This document shows positions 45,807-62,716 of a stretch of DNA of 64,000 nt, one piece after another. Below the pieces are notes generated by a model. That model saw nothing but the letters and a program-made list of their open reading frames with translations, had not been told where the DNA came from and searched no databases. A program made the translations under genes and the position numbers. Every line of letters begins with the position of its first letter. Position 1 is the stretch's first letter. Source of the DNA: Thermanaeromonas toyohensis ToBE (GTDB lineage: Bacteria > Bacillota > DSM-521 > Neomoorellales > Neomoorellaceae). The stretch lies in NCBI RefSeq assembly GCF_900176005.1, contig NZ_LT838272.1, positions 1,445,587 through 1,509,586 of the forward strand, in the 5' to 3' direction.

Positions 45807-46084
45807 ACAGATGTGGTCAACTTTCCTTGTGCCCATTGATTAGAAAAAATATGAAAAACTCGTTTAGGTCGGCAGGTATTGACTGTCTGGCATCGAATTT
45901 TTAAGCGGTAACGTTATCTATTTTGGCAGAGACGATAGACAAATTTGAGAAAACCAGGGAAGACCTCAGATAGAAATAGAAATATACGTTTAGCTGGTAT
46001 ACATAGAAAAGATTGCCGAAAGCCTTATTGGATAGGGTTTTCCCGTCTTGTTACCATGAAGTTGTGAAGAAGGAAGGGATTTTA

Positions 46085-46960
46085 GTGCAGAGAGGATCGG
46101 TGTTGGGGATAAGTTTTACTGTTACAACAAGAGAGAGAAAAAGCCCTTTTGTTCGCCTATTTACCAAGACACCGGCTGGTGTCATTTGCCCGCATTTTTA
46201 TGAGCTAATTCTTTCAAATGGATGTCCGTACGATTGCGCATACTGCTACTTGCGACTTACTTTTCGCGGGAAAAAGGATCCAGTACTTTATACCAACCGA
46301 TGGGAGAAAGTTGAGGATGAAATAAGGATGGCGGGACCAGGAGTTTTTTCGACCGGAGAACTAGCCGATAGCCTTGCTGTTTTGCCCCCTTTGTTGCCAC
46401 GGGCTATAGAGTATTTTAGAACTCAGAAAGACAAGTATTTGCTTTTGACTACAAAGAGCTGTAATACAAAACTGTTTGAGGAGCTTTCTCCGACTCGACA
46501 GGTGATAATTAGCTTTTCAATAAATGCTCCTGAAGTGGCCTCAAAGTATGAACGTTTAGCTCCATCACCCTTTGACAGGCTGAACGCTGCAACTAGATTA
46601 TTAGAACTTGGTTGGAGGGTTCGGGTCCGAATAGATCCGGTAATTATTGAAGGTGTTCAGCATGATAATATTTCTATATACCGCAAAATATGCAAGATAG
46701 TCGGACAACTCGGTGTTGAACGCGTGACAGTGGGAACGTTACGACAGTATCCTGGGTTGCATCGCTTTGCACCGAGTGCGCCAAGGGGTGGCCTTGTTAA
46801 GGCACCTGACGGGCGCATGAGGTATTCTTTATCCGTGCGAGTGAGAACTTACAATATGATAGCTGAGTGGCTCGGATTTGAACCGGCTTTATGTAAAGAA
46901 ACATATGAGGTTTGGGAGATGCTAACTTGGAGATACCGGGGTTGCAATTGTACAGTCTAA
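46085..46960 (+). CDS. Radical SAM protein (spore photoproduct lyase-like)
   Basis: About 291 residues. The cluster motif is GCPYDCAYCYLRLTFRG (CxxxCxxC). It also has PGVFSTGELADSLAV, LLLTTKSCNTKLF and ERVTVGTLRQYP, a pattern of the SPL-like radical SAM family. GTG with GAAGGAAGGGA upstream. Its last codons overlap by 4 bases the convergent tcmP gene. Three-Cys-motif proteins usually neighbour TcmP, so this may be its partner. A second, broken copy lies at 55354-57734. Confidence 0.8.
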   Translation: MQRGSVLGISFTVTTRERKSPFVRLFTKTPAGVICPHFYELILSNGCPYDCAYCYLRLTFRGKKDPVLYTNRWEKVEDEIRMAGPGVFSTGELADSLAVLPPLLPRAIEYFRTQKDKYLLLTTKSCNTKLFEELSPTRQVIISFSINAPEVASKYERLAPSPFDRLNAATRLLELGWRVRVRIDPVIIEGVQHDNISIYRKICKIVGQLGVERVTVGTLRQYPGLHRFAPSAPRGGLVKAPDGRMRYSLSVRVRTYNMIAEWLGFEPALCKETYEVWEMLTWRYRGCNCTV

Positions 46961-48069
46961 TCTGCGAAGGAAATAAATGTTCCCTCGGGGAAACCTCTAT
47001 TTTTGCCGGGTGGCCTTTCTACACTTATCTTAGGCGGTTGACTGCCAGCTAGAATTGTCAAGGCGGGCCGTACATGGCGCTGGAGATATGGAGTTTCACA
47101 AATAACGAAATGCTCTATCTGCTCAATTGAGAGTTTTTGTCCCCGAAATTTGCGCTCAAGTAGAAATGCCAAGTTATTACGATGGATATCGTCTGGATCA
47201 AAGATGGAGAGCTGGCCGGCATGGTGTTTGGAAGTTTCAAAAGCTGAAAATCGAAAATAGCCTGTCTCATCTACTTTCCACATAGCATTTTTCATCTCTT
47301 TTAGGCCCTCAATCCTGTTTGTGGAGAAGATTAAGAAATATTTTGTTCGGTTGTTTTTGTCTTTTATCTCGAAAGAACGCACGTACCGATGTCCGGTAGC
47401 CTTTTGTAGCTGGGACACGTAAAGGTTTGTTAAGAATTGTTTTCGCTCTTGGGGACATGTTAGTGAAAGGACTTTTTTCCATTCGTCGGTACCAAACAGG
47501 AGGGTGGTTTTATTTTCATGTGTTTCACACCATCTATTGACAGCGTCATACATAAAATTAAACAATACTTCACAGCTGGGATAGCGTAAAATCTTGGCTA
47601 TTAACTGGAGTGGAACACCAGATAGTCCGAACGGGTCTACAAAAACGAAAGATGGCGCTAGTGTTTGTTGCTGTTTTTCCAGCTCGGAAAGTACAGTTTC
47701 CATTACTTCTTCGAACGAAGATGGGATTACACTATAGTGGATTCCACTGGATTTCAGAGATGAGGAAGGAAATCTTTCTTCACACAACTTCTGTAAAAAC
47801 GTAGCTCTTTCTGTGTCACTTTCAATAAATAACATTCTGATTTCAGCTCTGAATTTATGACGAAGTACGTGTTCCGAAACAATCCTTAAAGCGATTAAAG
47901 GAGATCCTTCTTCGCCAGTACTGTACAATCCTGGACCGGCAAATCCGTCAATGTAAACAATCCGTTTAAATTTTTGCCCCAATATAGGGAACCACGCCTT
48001 TAGATACTCCCTAAGAACAGTGTGTTTTGCTTTAGAGTGCTCCTCTAATGGCCATATGAGGGTATCCAT
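46957..48069 (-). CDS. tcmP: Three-Cys-motif partner protein TcmP
   Basis: 370 residues on the minus strand, convergent with the radical SAM gene. Features: KAKHTVLREYLKAWFPIL, RIVYIDGFAGPGLYSTGEEG, FVFVDPFGLSGVPLQLIAKI and CEVLFNFMYDAVNRW, as in TcmP proteins (a methyltransferase-like fold with the IDGFAGPG loop). A good ribosome site (GGAGGGAG on the minus strand) precedes the ATG. TcmP is found with three-Cys-motif proteins in phage- and element-associated modules; its activity is unknown. AT-rich relative to its neighbours. Confidence 0.8.
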   Translation of the reverse strand: MDTLIWPLEEHSKAKHTVLREYLKAWFPILGQKFKRIVYIDGFAGPGLYSTGEEGSPLIALRIVSEHVLRHKFRAEIRMLFIESDTERATFLQKLCEERFPSSSLKSSGIHYSVIPSSFEEVMETVLSELEKQQQTLAPSFVFVDPFGLSGVPLQLIAKILRYPSCEVLFNFMYDAVNRWCETHENKTTLLFGTDEWKKVLSLTCPQERKQFLTNLYVSQLQKATGHRYVRSFEIKDKNNRTKYFLIFSTNRIEGLKEMKNAMWKVDETGYFRFSAFETSKHHAGQLSIFDPDDIHRNNLAFLLERKFRGQKLSIEQIEHFVICETPYLQRHVRPALTILAGSQPPKISVERPPGKNRGFPEGTFISFAD

Positions 48070-49133: not shown

Positions 49134-49511
49134 AACAAGGTTACGGAAAGAAAAATCAGCCATTGCGTATACAACATCAACTACCATATTGTTTTTTGTC
49201 CCAAGTACCGGCACGAAGTAATTAAGGATGGTGTCGCTAAAGCAATTAAAGACGTTGTTCAAGGAATATGTGCAACTTATGGTTATGATCTAATCCAAGT
49301 GGCCCCAGCGGAGATCGTCAAGCGGCTCAAGAGCATTACGGCTAATAGGATATTCGCCGCCTTTCCCGATATGAAAAAGAAGCATTTTTGGGGCAGTGGT
49401 CTCTGGAGCAGGGGCTATTATATCGGCACGGGCGGCAATGTCGCTGCCGAAACCATCCGCAGGTACATTGAAACCCAGAAGTCTTTGGGGAAGGAGGTGA
49501 AAGAGAAATGA
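49134..49511 (+). pseudogene. tnpA: tnpA (Y1/HUH transposase) lacking its HUH motif and start codon
   Basis: In one continuous frame the DNA reads ERKISHCVYNINYHIVFCPK, YRHEVIKDGVAKAIKDVVQG, GYDLIQ, then directly VAPAEIVKRLKSITANRIF, GSGLWSRGYYIGTGG and TIRRYIETQK. This is IS200-type TnpA including the catalytic Tyr helix. However, the central DHVHLL-type segment (about 20 residues, expected after YDLIQ) has been removed in frame. The frame begins after two stops with no ATG, GTG or TTG at the N-terminus. It overlaps the tnpB start by four bases (ATGA). Confidence 0.85.
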
Positions 49512-52871: not shown

Positions 52872-53117
52872 GTCAACTACCCCGTCCTGAAGGACGGGGC
52901 TTGCAGGCGGGGGCGTACTGTCTGTGAGCTTCCCTTTTAGGGAGGTAGTTGAACGTGGGTGTACCGTTGCAGTACCTGACGTTTCAGGGCGACACTCCCA
53001 GCTCTGAGAGACACCGGTGCAATCCCGGGGCCTGACGCGTGGTGCAGCGGTACGCCTCAGGGAGACCCACCACCTTTTGGTGCCCGGATCACAGGGCTCC
53101 TTGTGGGAGGTATCCAT
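52872..53117 (+). ncRNA. Omega RNA of iscB 1 (HEARO-like)
   Basis: The region between the left end and the iscB start has no gene. It is strongly structured: the terminal hairpin, then TTCCCTTTTAGGGA, the GGTGTACCG/CGGTACGCC pairing and ACCACCTTTTGGT before the start. In IscB systems the RNA lies here and its guide is the DNA just upstream of the left end. Confidence 0.7.
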
Positions 53118-54515
53118 GTGCTATTCACTGTAGACAGGAATGGGAACCCCGGTCATCCGACCAGGAGATTTGACATGATCCGGAAGCTGAAGAAGCGGAA
53201 GAGGGTAAGGATTATCGGCGGCGGGAAATCGGGCAAGCCGCCGGTTGTTATCTTTCTGGACAGGGAATTTGACTATTCGCGCACTGTAGGGAGAAAGCTG
53301 GTCATAGTCCTAGACCCTGGTTACCGCTATATAGGTTTTGCCGTATGCGAACCGAGGGGTGGGAAGCTGGTGGTTTACTGCCGCGGTGTCCTCCGTACGC
53401 GGATTCCTGAGATCAAAGGGCTGATGTCCGATAGGAGGTCCTTCCGCAGGTTCAGGAGGTATCTGTCGCGGTACAAGAAGAAGCGCCTTTCTGCGAGGCA
53501 GTGCAGGGTGCTGACCAAGTTCAAGGTACCGAGGAACGTCAGGTCGAAGGACAGGAGCAATGCCACCCTCAGGCACGGCGTAGAGACGCACCTGAACCTT
53601 TACCGGAAACTGCTCAGGTTTTTCCCTTTTCCGGCACACCAGGTAGAGTTTGTCATGGAGGACAACGTATTCGACGTCAGGGCCATGACGTGGGGCAAGG
53701 TGTACGGTGCTGATTATCAGAGGTCGCCCCGCGCTCCTGAGGGTGAAAGAAAATGCATTCTGTGTGGTTCGCAAGAGGACCTTCACCGGCACCATCTTGT
53801 TCCGCGGAAGAGCGGCGGCACGGAAGTCAGGGAGAACAAGGTGTACCTCTGCGTGGGCTGCCATGAAGAGGTCCACGCCGGCAGGGTGTTTCTTCCGGTC
53901 AGGGGCATCAAGCAGTGGCGCGAGCTGGGGACGATGAACGCTGTTATGGGGGTACTGCGTGAGGTGCCGTCTATCAGCTTTGTGCCTGCGCCCGAGGTGG
54001 TCCTCAAGAGGAGGGAGTTGGGACTGGAGAAGGACCATGCTGATGACGGTCTTGCGGCGGCAGCCGCTTTCTGCGGCTGTACTGGTTTTGACGCCTCTGT
54101 GGAACGCCGTCTCATGCTGGTCAAATTCAGGAGGCACGCCAGGGCGAGGGTACACGCTCAGAGGGACAGGCTCTACAAGGTAGACGGAGTGATCATAGCG
54201 AGGAATAGGCGGAAGAGGGGGGACCAGAAGGATCCTTCCTTTGCCGATGTGTTTCCTCTTTCTCCAGAGCAGCAGAGAGGCCTGAAGGTATACCCGGGAA
54301 CCAAAATACTCAACCCGTTCAGGAACGATGTTTTAACCATCGGAGGCGACGTCTGGGTTCATATTCCGACCGGCAGGCGTTTTGTAGCGACCGGTGTGAT
54401 ATCGGAGAAGTACCTGTACTCTCCGATGCTAGAGGAAATTACAGGAAAGTCATACATTCACCCCGACCAGTGCCGGCGAGTGATCCGCAATGAAGGGATA
54501 GTAGTATGGAGCTAG
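53118..54515 (+). CDS. iscB: IscB RNA-guided nuclease 1
   Basis: 465 residues. The PLMP-type N-terminus is the GHPTRRFDMIRKLKKRKR variant. RuvC-I is VIVLDPGYRYIGFAV, then an Arg-rich bridge helix (RRSFRRFRRYLSRYKKKR). RuvC-II is VEFVMEDNVFDV. The HNH domain sits at CILCGSQEDLHRHHLVPRK with CVGCHEEVHAG. RuvC-III is KDHADDGLAAAAAF, followed by a C-terminal target-interaction domain. All catalytic residues are present, so it should cut both strands. The GTG at 53118 follows GGGAGGTATCC. Cas9-related ancestor family. Confidence 0.92.
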   Translation: MLFTVDRNGNPGHPTRRFDMIRKLKKRKRVRIIGGGKSGKPPVVIFLDREFDYSRTVGRKLVIVLDPGYRYIGFAVCEPRGGKLVVYCRGVLRTRIPEIKGLMSDRRSFRRFRRYLSRYKKKRLSARQCRVLTKFKVPRNVRSKDRSNATLRHGVETHLNLYRKLLRFFPFPAHQVEFVMEDNVFDVRAMTWGKVYGADYQRSPRAPEGERKCILCGSQEDLHRHHLVPRKSGGTEVRENKVYLCVGCHEEVHAGRVFLPVRGIKQWRELGTMNAVMGVLREVPSISFVPAPEVVLKRRELGLEKDHADDGLAAAAAFCGCTGFDASVERRLMLVKFRRHARARVHAQRDRLYKVDGVIIARNRRKRGDQKDPSFADVFPLSPEQQRGLKVYPGTKILNPFRNDVLTIGGDVWVHIPTGRRFVATGVISEKYLYSPMLEEITGKSYIHPDQCRRVIRNEGIVVWS

Positions 54516-54588
54516 CCGCCTTTCATCTCCGCCCTGAAGGGCGGAGTCTTCCCGGCGGCAGAAGATAAAATACAGAAGGTGGTATTCG

Positions 54589-55353: not shown

Positions 55354-56190
55354 GTGCTAAACTATGTGGAAGGGATAGCATTGTTTGGAAATGCTGCATT
55401 CGAAGGCTCCCGCGGGGTAGGGCGAGAAAGGAAGAGCCCTTTTGTTCGGTTGTTTACCAAAACCCCAACTGATGTTCTGTGCCCTCATTTCTATGAGCTG
55501 ATTCTCTCAAATGGGTGCCCTTATGACTGTGCTTACTGCTACCTGCGGCTTACGTTTCGCGGCAGGAAGGAGCCCGTGGTGTTCACCAATTCCTGGCAGC
55601 AGGTACAGAACGAGTTGGACAGGGCTGGGCCGGGTGTTTTCTCCACGGGTGAACTGGCTGACAGCCTTGCTGTTGTGCCCCCTTTGCTGGGGGAAGCCAT
55701 AGAATATTTCAGGGGGCAGAAGCAGAAGTACCTGCTCTTGACCACGAAGAGCTGCAATGTAAAGCTGTTTGAATGTAAAGCTGTTTGATAGAATTAAGCC
55801 AACCCCGCAGGTAATAATTAGCTTTTCCATTAACGCCCCGGAGATTGCGTCAAAGTGCGAACGGTTGGCCCCCTCGCCGTTTTCACGGCTGGGTGCCGCG
55901 GCCAGGTTGTTGGAACTCGGCTGGCGGGTACGTATCAGGTTAGACCCCGTAATTGTCGAAGGCGGGATTGAGGGAATGGAAGCGTACCGCGATATTTGTA
56001 AGCAGATTAAGGGCCTTGGCCCCGAACGGGTAACGGTGGGGACTTTGCGGCAGTACCCGGGATTGTACCGTTTTGCGCCTGATGCGCCACGCAGTGGGTT
56101 AGGTAAAGCACCTGACGGCAGGATGAGGTATCCTGTGGCCGTCCGTGTAAAGGTATATCGGATGCTGGCTGATTGGTTCGGCTGTCAGTG
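55354..56190 (+). pseudogene. Radical SAM protein gene, frameshifted and interrupted (5' part)
   Basis: It is a copy of the gene at 46085: CPHFYELILSNGCPYDCAYC, PGVFSTGELADSLAVVPPLL, LLTTKSCNVKLF. A 16-bp tandem duplication (AATGTAAAGCTGTTTG at 55756-55771 and 55772-55787) then throws the frame. The next frame continues RIKPTPQVIISFSINAPEIA through VTVGTLRQYPGLYRF to ADWFGCQ, where the IsrB element is inserted. The 3' part is found after that element. Confidence 0.88.
55756..55787 (+). repeat. 16-bp tandem duplication causing a frameshift
   Basis: AATGTAAAGCTGTTTG is present twice in a row. Removing one copy restores a single frame through the radical SAM gene. Confidence 0.9.
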
Positions 56191-56498
56191 GCCCCACGGC
56201 TGAGGCCGGGGCCTTGCCGGTGTTAGGCCGGCAGCTTCCGCTTTAAGCGTGGGGTGGGATGGCGGTACTCCCAGCAACAGCTGACTAGACGGTGTCTCCA
56301 TCTTAGGAGGCGCAGTCGCACCGGGGAACTGAGAAGCGGTCCGGGGTATTTCGCAAGCCCCGGGGTACCGCGGCAGAACCGCCTAATGCCTGAAACGTTA
56401 CCCTGCGGCAGGAGACCGCAGGGGAGTTCTCCGGGCAGCGTCGATGCGACCGCAACCCTTGGGGGCCGCAATCGGCACCCCGGAAGGGGGAAAGCGAA
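56188..56498 (+). ncRNA. Omega RNA of isrB
   Basis: Structured region between left end and isrB: GCCGG-TGTTA-GGCCGGC type pairings, CCCTGCGGCAGG/GACCGCAGGGG and a CACCCCGGAAGGGGG hairpin overlapping the ribosome site. Its predicted guide would be the radical SAM sequence just before GTCA. Confidence 0.7.
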
Positions 56499-57584
56499 GT
56501 GGAGTACGGAGTGTCACAGAACGAAATAAGCAAGGCCTGTGCTCTGTATTTTTCGGAGCGTATTCCCGTGGTGTCGAGGGACGGCAGGCCGCTGATGCCG
56601 TGCCGTCCAGCCAAGGCACGGAAATTGCTTTCTTCCGGGAAGGCAGAGCCACGCTGGTCCAAGCTGGGGCTGTTTTACATTCAGCTCGGGATAGACATTA
56701 AGTCGGAGTACAATGGCGGCGGTCAGAGCTTCGTACTGGCACACGACCCTGGTTCCAAGTTCGACGGGATGGCCCTGGGGTGCAAGTTCGTCCAGCTGCG
56801 GTTTATGGTCATCCTGCCGCAAAAGGTGGCGGGTAAGATGAAGAACCGCCGGGAGCTGCGCCGGGGGAGGAGGTACCGCAACTGCCGCAGGCGCCCCTAC
56901 CGGCCGAGGAGCCCTGGACCGTACTGGATAGCCCCTACGCAGCTGGCCAAGGTCCTTTTCCGGTTGGCAGTGGTAGAGGAACTATGTCGTTTGTTTCCAA
57001 TCTCTCATTTTATCGTGGAGGACGTGCGCTTCAACCACTTCCGGTTCCGGCACGGGAAGCACTTTTCCACGGCAGAAATTGGTAAAACACGGTATTATTC
57101 AGAACTCTGCAGGCTGGGGGTTTTGGTCCTGGTGGAGGGTTGGCAGACGAAGTTGTGGCGTGAGGGCGCCGGGTTGAAGAAAGTTACGCGGAAGGATGCG
57201 TTAATTCCCGGTTCTCATGCGAACGACGCCGTGGCCATGCTTTGGGGACTGGCTGGCTGCGGGGTCAACGAGGGTGCTCCGTTTTACGTACTGCGCCGGC
57301 CGGAATTTGCAAGGCGGAGCCTTCACCGGCAGAACTTCCAGAAGGGCTGCGTCCGGTCCCTATTTGGCGGGACCAGCAACGGTAGTTTTCTGCGGAAAGG
57401 GGACTACGTAGAAGCGGAGAAGGCAGGAAAAGTGTACCGCGGTTGGGTATGTGGGCTGCCCACGGAGACGACCCCACTTGTGGGGGTTATGGACGCCAGG
57501 GGTGTACGCATTGGCCAGTTTGCGCCGGGGAAGGTGCGCCTGCTGCAGCGGGGGCACAACATTCTTTGGGAGAGGGTAATGTGA
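56499..57584 (+). CDS. isrB: IsrB RNA-guided nickase (RuvC only)
   Basis: 361 residues. PLMP motif RDGRPLMPCRPAKARKLLSS. RuvC-I VLAHDPGSKFDGMALG. Arg-rich bridge helix (NRRELRRGRRYRNCRRRPYR). RuvC-II ISHFIVEDVRFNHFR. The chain then runs straight to GSHANDAVAMLWGL (RuvC-III) with no HNH or CxxC. This architecture is IsrB, which nicks one strand. GTG with GGAAGGGGGAAAGCGAA upstream. The C-terminal 110 residues carry the target-interaction beta domain. Confidence 0.92.
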   Translation: MEYGVSQNEISKACALYFSERIPVVSRDGRPLMPCRPAKARKLLSSGKAEPRWSKLGLFYIQLGIDIKSEYNGGGQSFVLAHDPGSKFDGMALGCKFVQLRFMVILPQKVAGKMKNRRELRRGRRYRNCRRRPYRPRSPGPYWIAPTQLAKVLFRLAVVEELCRLFPISHFIVEDVRFNHFRFRHGKHFSTAEIGKTRYYSELCRLGVLVLVEGWQTKLWREGAGLKKVTRKDALIPGSHANDAVAMLWGLAGCGVNEGAPFYVLRRPEFARRSLHRQNFQKGCVRSLFGGTSNGSFLRKGDYVEAEKAGKVYRGWVCGLPTETTPLVGVMDARGVRIGQFAPGKVRLLQRGHNILWERVM

Positions 57585-57638
57585 GCGAGGCGCTTCCTCC
57601 TCACGGCTGAAGCCGGGGGACTCCGGCGCTGAGATTTT

Positions 57639-57734
57639 TGTTGAACCTGCGCTTTGCAAGGAGACGCGTCAGGTGTGGGAGCGTAAAAACAGTTGCTTGA
57701 TTGGCAGTTCCGTGGATACAATTGTACTTCTTAA
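57639..57734 (+). pseudogene. Radical SAM gene, 3' part after the IsrB element
   Basis: Right after the right end the DNA reads VEPALCKETRQVWE, matching FEPALCKETYEVWE of the intact copy at 46.9 kb. After a small indel, WQFRGYNCTS and a stop match WRYRGCNCTV. It is the missing tail of the gene broken at 56190. Confidence 0.85.
57693..57722 (+). promoter_or_regulatory. Possible sigma-A promoter
   Basis: TTGCTT, an 18-base spacer, then TACAAT, about 130 bases before the gene at 57849. It lies within the 3' remnant of the radical SAM gene, so it may be fortuitous. Confidence 0.4.
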
Positions 57735-60979: not shown

Positions 60980-62694
60980 GTCATAGACCCCACGGCTGAA
61001 GCCGGGGGCTTGCCTTCCGGGTTTCAGCCGTAGGCCTTAAGGCCTGGCTATGACCAGCCTCGGGGCCGGACCTGAAGGACAAGGGGATGAAGGCACTACG
61101 TTGGCAGCGGGTCCAGGACCCACTCCGGGATGCTCTTCCAGTTCCGGACCCTGGAAGCCCCGGCTGCAGACAGCCATCGGGGTAAGGGCGAAACGGGCCG
61201 GGGCGAGCGCCGGCTGCCAACATTGGCGAGGAGGGTGCCGGGGAGAGTCCGCCCCGGCGCGTCACCAGCCCCGTAAGGGGTTCCCCCGCAAGGGGGAAAA
61301 GATGGGGGTGCGGAGCATGATTTTTGTTTTGGACAGGAAGAAAAAACCGCTGATGCCCTGTTCCGAGAAGCGTGCGAGGGAGCTTTTGCGGGAGGGGCGG
61401 GCTGCGGTGCACCGCCTGGTCCCGTTCGTCATCCGGCTGAAGGACCGGGTCCGGGGAGAGTCGTCCTTCCAGCCTCTGAAGCTGAAGATCGACCCGGGCT
61501 ACGAAGTCACCGGCATTTCTGTAGTGCGGGTAGCAGAAGGGAAAGAAGTGGTTATTTTCTTCATAGAAGTGCACCACCGTACGGACATATCGGATGCTCT
61601 CAAGGCAAGGAGGGACTACCGGAGGAACCGCCGTAGCCGCAAGACCAGGTACCGCGCACCGAGGTTTGACAACCGGAAGAGGCGCAGGGGCTGGCTCCCT
61701 CCCAGCGTTGAGGCCCGCATTCAGGAGGTAATGAGCGTGGTGGAGAAGCTGTGCCGGTGGCTGCCCATTGGGGAGATCGTAGTGGAGTCGGCGAAGTTTG
61801 ACACCCAGAAGCTGCAGAACCCCGAAATATCCGGTGTGGAGTACCAGCGGGGCACGCTGTTCGGGTATGAGGTGCGTGAATACCTTTTGGAGAAGTGGGG
61901 GAGGAAGTGTGCGTACTGCGGTAAGGAGGGTGTTCCCCTGGAGATAGAGCACGTGATTCCGGAGTCGCGCGGCGGGACGAACAGGGTCTCGAACCTTACT
62001 CTGGCGTGCCGGGAATGCAACGAAGCGAAGGACGACAGGCTGCCGCAGGAGTGGCTGGAGGAGCTGAAGAAGTCGGAGCGCAGTATTGACAGGAAGCGCG
62101 CGGAGAACCTTGAGAAGGTAATGGGCCAGCTGAAGGAGCCGCTTAAAGCAGCAGCTTATATGAACGCTACCAGGTATGCGCTGGTGGAAAGGCTGAAGGC
62201 CTTAAACTTGCCGATTTCGACGGCGACGGCTGCCCGCACGAAGTACAACCGTGCCAGGTTCAACCTGCCGAAGACGCACTATTACGATGCGTGCTGCGTG
62301 GGGGAAATACCTGGAGGGCTGGAAATAGCTACGGAATACGTGCTGCAATTCCGTGCTGTGGGGCGTGGTAGCAGGCAGATGAGCAACGTAGACGACAGCG
62401 GTTTTTCAAGGGGACACCGCATGAAGAAGAAGGTTTACTTTGGGTTCATGACTGGAGACCTGGTGCTGGCCGAGATACCGGGAGGGAAGTATGCGGGAAG
62501 GCATGTTGGCTTTGTGGCGGTGCGTGCGAGTGGGTATTTCGACCTGAAAAACTTTTCGGGCGACCGGGTGTGCCAGGGTATTTCATGGAAGCACTTCAGG
62601 CTCCTGCAACGTTTTGACGGCTGGCGTTACGAGAAGTTTAAAGTCGCGGCGCTTTCCTCCCCATACCTGAAGGCAGGGGCCTCCAGCGCCGCCT
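60980..62694 (+). mobile_element. iscB element 2
   Basis: Left end GTCATAGACC and a CCCCACGGC-TGAA-GCCGGGGG hairpin, a 310-base RNA, iscB and a right hairpin (CCATACC-TGAA-GGCAGGGG) flanked by GCGGCGC/GCGCCGC at 62646-62694. The left hairpin is nearly the same as in the isrB element. It lies between the disulfide oxidoreductase gene and tadE. Confidence 0.8.
60984..61301 (+). ncRNA. Omega RNA of iscB 2 (HEARO-like)
   Basis: Gene-free structured region: the terminal hairpin, GGCCTTAAGGCC (near 61034), the GGACCTGAAGGAC and GGGTCCAGGACCC palindromes, CCCCGTAAGGGG and CCCCCGCAAGGGGG just before the start. It is longer than the other two. Confidence 0.7.
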
Positions 62695-62696
62695 AA
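61302..62696 (+). CDS. iscB: IscB RNA-guided nuclease 2
   Basis: 464 residues. PLMP motif LDRKKKPLMPCSEKRARELL. RuvC-I LKIDPGYEVTGISVV. Basic bridge helix (RRDYRRNRRSRKTRYRAPR). RuvC-II GEIVVESAKFDTQKL. HNH at CAYCGKEGVPLEIEHVIPES with CRECNEAKDD. RuvC-III LPKTHYYDACCVGEI. All catalytic positions look intact. ATG with AAGGGGGAAAAG upstream; an ATG at 61317 is an alternative. The last 15 codons (ALSSPYLKAGASSAA) are the right end itself, so protein and terminus overlap. Confidence 0.92.
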   Translation: MGVRSMIFVLDRKKKPLMPCSEKRARELLREGRAAVHRLVPFVIRLKDRVRGESSFQPLKLKIDPGYEVTGISVVRVAEGKEVVIFFIEVHHRTDISDALKARRDYRRNRRSRKTRYRAPRFDNRKRRRGWLPPSVEARIQEVMSVVEKLCRWLPIGEIVVESAKFDTQKLQNPEISGVEYQRGTLFGYEVREYLLEKWGRKCAYCGKEGVPLEIEHVIPESRGGTNRVSNLTLACRECNEAKDDRLPQEWLEELKKSERSIDRKRAENLEKVMGQLKEPLKAAAYMNATRYALVERLKALNLPISTATAARTKYNRARFNLPKTHYYDACCVGEIPGGLEIATEYVLQFRAVGRGSRQMSNVDDSGFSRGHRMKKKVYFGFMTGDLVLAEIPGGKYAGRHVGFVAVRASGYFDLKNFSGDRVCQGISWKHFRLLQRFDGWRYEKFKVAALSSPYLKAGASSAA

Positions 62697-62716
62697 TTGG
62701 TGAAGGGGGGCTTCTT

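What the first reader, a model, noticed from the sequence alone, without database searches (positions are those of the whole stretch)
55354..57734. IsrB element caught inside a radical SAM gene, with both halves readable
Up to ADWFGCQ the left flank is a radical SAM protein; after the right end the DNA resumes at EPALCKETRQVWE and the C-terminal WQFRGYNCTS. An uninterrupted homolog 10 kb away (46085-46960) shows continuous sequence. This places the element ends within a few bases, proves IsrB elements moved on this replicon, and predicts the RNA guide (sequence before GTCA) and the empty target.
Basis: seen in the sequence. Interest (0 to 1): 0.85.

Follow-up and report, generated by a model that had tools for sequence, protein, structure and literature searches.

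The report
IsrB mobile element inside radical-SAM gene
A 1,457-base mobile element carrying an RNA-guided DNA nickase (IsrB, a Cas9 cousin) has jumped cleanly into a radical-SAM enzyme gene, and the uninterrupted sister gene shows to the base where it landed, which guide its RNA would carry, and that the landing motif is the one the enzyme family was shown in the test tube to need.

Summary
An IsrB gene (RuvC, no HNH; best PDB match DtIsrB, 8dmb) with its upstream omega-RNA region lies in a radical-SAM/spore-photoproduct-lyase-like gene. Of 1,200 tested excisions, 56183|57641 aligns best with the uninterrupted paralogue 46013-46960, restoring ...DWFGFEPALCKE... without gap, scar or target duplication. 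The element is 56184-57640: it starts GTCA and is followed by TTGA. A second copy (91-92% DNA identity, 1,458 bp, 155 kb away, unrelated flanks) has the same GTCA start and following TTGAAC. GTCA starts 55 related IsrB/IscB elements, with any base before it. TTGA/NTGA is the TAM measured for DtIsrB (PMC9581776). Predicted guide: GCTGGCTGATTGGTTCGGCT; the only exact genomic match is the element's own flank. The paralogue keeps the TAM but has 5 mismatches.

Corrections: 'both halves readable' is only partly true. The gene also carries a 16-bp tandem-duplication frameshift (55756-55787) and an ~11-bp frameshifting insertion (~57680-57690). No transposase lies in the element; the genome has two IS200-like TnpA loci, one split between frames, neither shown to move IsrB.

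Verdict: a real, unusually clean member of a known kind (OMEGA/IS200-IS605 IsrB element), with selection on IsrB (dN/dS about 0.11) and compensatory omega-RNA base pairs. Modest interest.

The parts
56184..57640 (+). IsrB element, 1457 bp, from GTCA to the base before TTGA; scarless insertion
   Evidence: best of 1200 excisions against the paralogue; ends shared with copy 2; GTCA start in 55 related elements
56499..57584 (+). isrB, 361 aa, GTG start; RuvC residues D83, E174, H240/D243 and TAM-reading R337/Q340 (DtIsrB R323/Q326) kept; no HNH
   Evidence: Pfam RRXRR 2.2e-32, best PDB match 8dmb E 2.7e-114, positions, dN/dS 0.032/0.283 between copies
56184..56498 (+). omega-RNA scaffold region (315 nt up to the isrB start codon; 3' end of the RNA not determined)
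   Evidence: alignment A2 and consensus fold: 25 of 41 pairs with compensatory changes; GTCA pairs with TGAC
56164..56183 (+). predicted 20-nt guide GCTGGCTGATTGGTTCGGCT, host (radical-SAM) sequence read into the omega RNA
   Evidence: position directly 5' of the scaffold start; no other exact match in the genome
57641..57644 (+). TTGA target-adjacent motif in the right flank (target site, not part of the element)
   Evidence: same TTGAAC follows copy 2; NTGA/TTGA TAM of DtIsrB (PMC9581776)
56192..56211 (+). left-end imperfect hairpin CCCCACGGCTGAGGCCGGGG
   Evidence: sequence; conserved in relatives
57598..57619 (+). right-end imperfect hairpin (CTCACGGCTGAAGCCGGGG)
   Evidence: sequence, same in copy 2
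55354..56183 (+). 5' part of the interrupted radical-SAM (spore photoproduct lyase-like) pseudogene
   Evidence: 81% and 71% identity to the paralogue on the two sides of a frameshift, Pfam Radical_SAM
55756..55787 (+). 16-bp tandem duplication AATGTAAAGCTGTTTG x2 that shifts the host frame
   Evidence: sequence, alignment
57641..57734 (+). 3' part of the interrupted gene, with an ~11-bp insertion near 57680-57690 that shifts the frame
   Evidence: alignment
46013..46960 (+). uninterrupted paralogue; keeps TTGA but mismatches the guide at 5 of 20 positions

Best explanation
A non-autonomous IS200/IS605-type element carrying an IsrB nickase and its omega RNA inserted, in the sense direction and without target duplication, just 5' of a TTGA motif in a radical-SAM gene. 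By this placement the last 20 bases of the left flank became the 5' guide of the omega RNA, so IsrB with this RNA would recognise and nick an element-free allele (guide match followed by TTGA) and not its own occupied locus, where the guide match is followed by GTCA. The likely benefit to the element is retention or re-copying into empty sites by repair from the occupied copy. Shown: ends, scarless join, shared motif, second copy, selection on IsrB, RNA base-pair conservation. Inferred: nicking activity of this protein, retention function, and mobilisation in trans by a Y1 (TnpA) transposase. The stated confidence is for the insertion, its ends, guide and TAM; for the retention function alone it would be about 0.6.
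For: Best excision 56183|57641 restores the paralogue's frame exactly. Second copy with the same GTCA start and TTGAAC after the end in unrelated DNA. GTCA starts 55 related elements with any base in front (22 G, 16 T, 10 A, 7 C). NTGA directly after the right end in most IsrB relatives read, matching the DtIsrB TAM, whose reading residues R323/Q326 are conserved as R337/Q340. RuvC residues kept; dN 0.032, dS 0.283 between the copies. 25 of 41 omega-RNA pairs show compensatory change. The guide's only exact match is its own flank, and the only other match within 3 mismatches is not followed by NTGA.
Against: No expression or activity data. No transposase in the element; of the genome's two TnpA loci one is split between frames, and the flanks of the genome's IS605-like elements suggest a TTTAT target, not TTCAA (reading). 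No element-free allele of this gene from the same species is held, so the empty site is deduced from a paralogue.
Confidence: 0.93

Rival explanations
1. The IsrB region is a fossil: the element once inserted here but is now dead, sitting in a decayed gene, with no functional guide.
For: Host gene has two other frameshifts; no intact matching target in the genome; no cognate transposase identified.
Against: IsrB is a full ORF with catalytic and TAM residues, dN/dS about 0.11 between copies, and omega-RNA pairs are conserved.
Confidence: 0.25
2. The two halves are two separate genes, and the resemblance across the junction to the paralogue is coincidental or due to recombination other than insertion.
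For: The halves are frameshifted, so no single ORF survives after removal of the insert.
Against: The homology-derived junction coincides to the base with the ends derived independently from other elements, and the paralogue and a distant orthologue are continuous across it.
Confidence: 0.02
3. The element now serves the host: IsrB with the radical-SAM guide regulates or polices the paralogue at 46013-46960 rather than homing into empty sites.
For: The paralogue carries TTGA at the homologous position and 15 of 20 guide matches.
Against: Mismatches include positions 2 and 7 from the TAM, the region where Cas9-like enzymes tolerate least (general knowledge, not tested for IsrB).
Confidence: 0.04

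Closest known systems
DtIsrB of Desulfovirgula thermocuniculi (PDB 8dmb; Hirano et al. 2022, PMC9581776)
   Same: Same domain layout (RuvC, no HNH; conserved TAM-interacting residues), ~280-315-nt upstream RNA with 5' guide, TTGA/NTGA motif 3' of the guide match
   Different: Protein clearly diverged from DtIsrB (58% identity to the D. thermocuniculi genome copy L026); the four closest RNAs here (window, copy 2, L024, L025) carry an extra ~45-nt stretch near the 5' end; here the natural insertion site and an uninterrupted paralogue are both available
IscB elements (HNH-containing OMEGA nucleases)
   Same: Same GTCA left end and hairpin; IscB-like elements of this genome lie at window 52872-~54560 and 60980-~62700 and at C1:1424061
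   Different: No HNH here; the IscB copies at window 53103 and L013 are followed by ATAAA rather than TTGA
IS200/IS605 transposons with TnpB
   Same: Scarless insertion next to a short motif, subterminal hairpins, guide taken from the flank
   Different: Guide at the 5' rather than 3' end of the RNA, motif on the 3' side of the nuclease gene, no transposase gene inside

Membership tests
IsrB (OMEGA nickase) | RuvC-like nuclease with RRXRR/bridge region and no HNH domain | tested here: met
   RRXRR only, no HNH, versus HNH found in window 53103-54515; best PDB hit IsrB 8dmb at 2.7e-114, next IscB at 5e-6
IsrB (OMEGA nickase) | structured ~300-nt RNA directly upstream whose 5' end is a guide from the flank | tested here: met
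   315-nt conserved region with 25 of 41 pairs showing compensatory changes, starting exactly at the insertion junction; transcription not tested
IsrB (OMEGA nickase) | NTGA/TTGA motif 3' of the guide match | tested here: met
   TTGA follows the element in both copies and NTGA in most relatives read; residues that read it conserved
IsrB (OMEGA nickase) | RNA-guided nicking of the non-target strand | not testable with these tools
   needs purified protein and RNA
IS200/IS605 element | insertion without target duplication next to a fixed short motif | tested here: met
   junction analysis and copy 2
IS200/IS605 element | subterminal imperfect hairpins at both ends | tested here: met
   CCCCACGGCTGAGGCCGGGG and CTCACGGCTGAAGCCGGGG
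IS200/IS605 element | Y1 transposase TnpA encoded or available in trans | tested here: inconclusive
   none in the element; two TnpA loci in the genome, one split between frames, match to IsrB ends not shown

The most novel reading that the evidence does not exclude
IsrB elements as a group sit almost only in the sense direction within host operons because their 5'-guide RNA must be transcribed from a host promoter, so each insertion is selected for read-through; and some (e.g. L136, whose guide matches with one mismatch the start of the next gene, followed by ATGA) have become cis-acting RNA-guided regulators of a neighbouring gene.
Probability: 0.12. Interest if true: 0.75.

Novelty: new member of a known kind. 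Interest (0 to 1): 0.42.

Why it matters
The interrupted gene, its uninterrupted paralogue and a second copy in one genome together fix the ends of a natural IsrB element to the base, and show that the motif an IsrB relative needs in vitro (TTGA) is the motif beside natural insertions. It gives a ready guide/target/TAM set for testing what a nickase without HNH does for its element, which I take to be still open.

Tried and rejected
Empty-site orthologues: only one distant orthologue (32%) outside the genome; none close enough for DNA comparison, none in viral or phage collections. Empty site for copy 2: the joined frame stays open, but no homologue covers the junction. Rfam has no model that matches at gathering threshold. 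Sense-orientation bias from ORF lengths alone was unreliable: it called the known sense case antisense, so it was replaced by Pfam counts (left flank: 39 families in sense ORFs against 10, from about two proteins, in antisense). A right-flank control gave the same bias (36 against 1), so promoter dependence cannot be told from insertion bias relative to replication or operons. The founding papers on OMEGA and ISC elements are not in the library.

Full report
What is there. The window is bases 1445587-1509586 of a single-contig 3.33 Mb genome. At 56499-57584 lies a 361-aa protein with the RRXRR domain and no HNH domain. Its best match among solved structures is DtIsrB, 8dmb, at E 2.7e-114; IscB structures follow only at 5e-6. 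Upstream lies a 315-base non-coding region. The flanks are two parts of a radical-SAM gene of the spore photoproduct lyase type, 81% and 71% identical to the uninterrupted paralogue 46013-46960.

The junction. I scored every excision with the left cut between 56170 and 56199 and the right cut between 57620 and 57659 against the paralogue. The best of 1200 is 56183|57641, and the joined flanks read ADWFGFEPALCKET in frame, as in the paralogue (AEWLGFEPALCKET), with no gap and no repeated base. A distant orthologue in G143 (32% identity) is also continuous here. The ends were then derived independently. A second copy, 1458 bp, at C1:1656906-1658363 lies in unrelated DNA; both copies share sequence from GTCA to TTGAAC. 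In 55 related IsrB/IscB elements the conserved left end starts at GTCA, and the base before it is free (22 G, 16 T, 10 A, 7 C; the set was picked with GTCA as part of the search, so the free base and the hairpin behind it are the informative part). Both routes give the same element, 56184-57640.

Guide and TAM. The last 20 flank bases, GCTGGCTGATTGGTTCGGCT, are the predicted guide, and TTGA follows in the restored site. DtIsrB nicks targets followed by NTGA, with a TTGA preference at 60 degrees, read by R323 and Q326 (PMC9581776). These residues are R337 and Q340 here. NTGA also follows most IsrB relatives whose right ends could be read; one has TTGG and a few ends were unclear. In the whole genome the guide matches exactly only its own flank. 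One other site within three mismatches is followed by GGAAG. The paralogue has TTGA but five mismatches, at positions 2, 7, 11, 17 and 19 from the TAM.

Function. Catalytic positions D83, E174 and H240/D243 are kept. Between the two copies dN is 0.032 and dS 0.283, so the protein has been under purifying selection since they separated. The RNA region folds into a consensus in which 25 of 41 pairs show compensatory changes; the terminal GTCA pairs with an internal TGAC, which would explain why the left end is fixed at that letter. The best-supported account is an element whose RNA-guided nickase recognises element-free alleles. Nicking by this protein and retention of the element are inferred from DtIsrB and from general OMEGA knowledge, not shown here.

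Limits. The host gene is broken twice more: a 16-bp tandem duplication at 55756-55787 and an ~11-bp insertion near 57680-57690. It is therefore unknown whether the insertion inactivated a working gene. The element has no transposase. The genome has two IS200-like TnpA loci, one of them split between frames in this window (~49160-49480). By eye their own elements lie next to TTTAT, and the IscB copies at 53103 and C1:1424061 are followed by ATAAA, its complement, whereas IsrB uses TTGA(A). Which enzyme moves IsrB is open.

A wider pattern, not settled. In 55 elements from this phylum and others the neighbouring genes run in the same direction as the IsrB/IscB gene: left-flank sense ORFs hit 39 Pfam families, antisense 10 from about two proteins; right-flank 36 against 1. 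A few right-flank sense hits are parts of the nuclease gene itself. Since both flanks show it, this may reflect insertion bias (Y1 transposases prefer one replication strand, general knowledge) rather than the need of a 5' guide for a host promoter.

Verdict. It is a member of a known kind, documented unusually well by its own genome.

Noticed in passing
L136:1738-3120: IsrB element between two pilus-type ATPase genes whose 20-nt guide recurs with one mismatch just after the element, at the start of the downstream gene, followed by ATGA: a ~20-bp duplication and an apparently intact self-target.
   Followed up: partly
window 52872-54560 and 60980-62700: Two IscB elements with the same GTCA left end as the IsrB element; three OMEGA elements lie within 10 kb, and all six RRXRR genes of the genome lie on the + strand within 310 kb.
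   Followed up: partly
window 49160-49510: IS200-like TnpA split between two frames beside a TnpB-type ORF; a second, open copy lies at C1:2962039.
   Followed up: partly
window 46013-48069: The intact radical-SAM paralogue lies tail to tail with a three-Cys-motif partner gene (TcmP, TIGR04474) and near a Dam methylase; no TcmP gene was seen directly beside the interrupted copy.
   Followed up: no
L024-L036, L077-L155: IsrB/IscB elements lie overwhelmingly in the same direction as neighbouring genes on both sides.
   Followed up: partly
L025:3341-3685 and L025:5062-5230: Another IsrB element appears to split a small phage-type gene (RelE/HigB-like by eye), again just before TTGA; not joined or tested further.
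   Followed up: no
L069:3541-3840: A viral contig carries an IsrB relative with a Y1 transposase close by, a candidate for the kind of enzyme that moves such elements.
   Followed up: no
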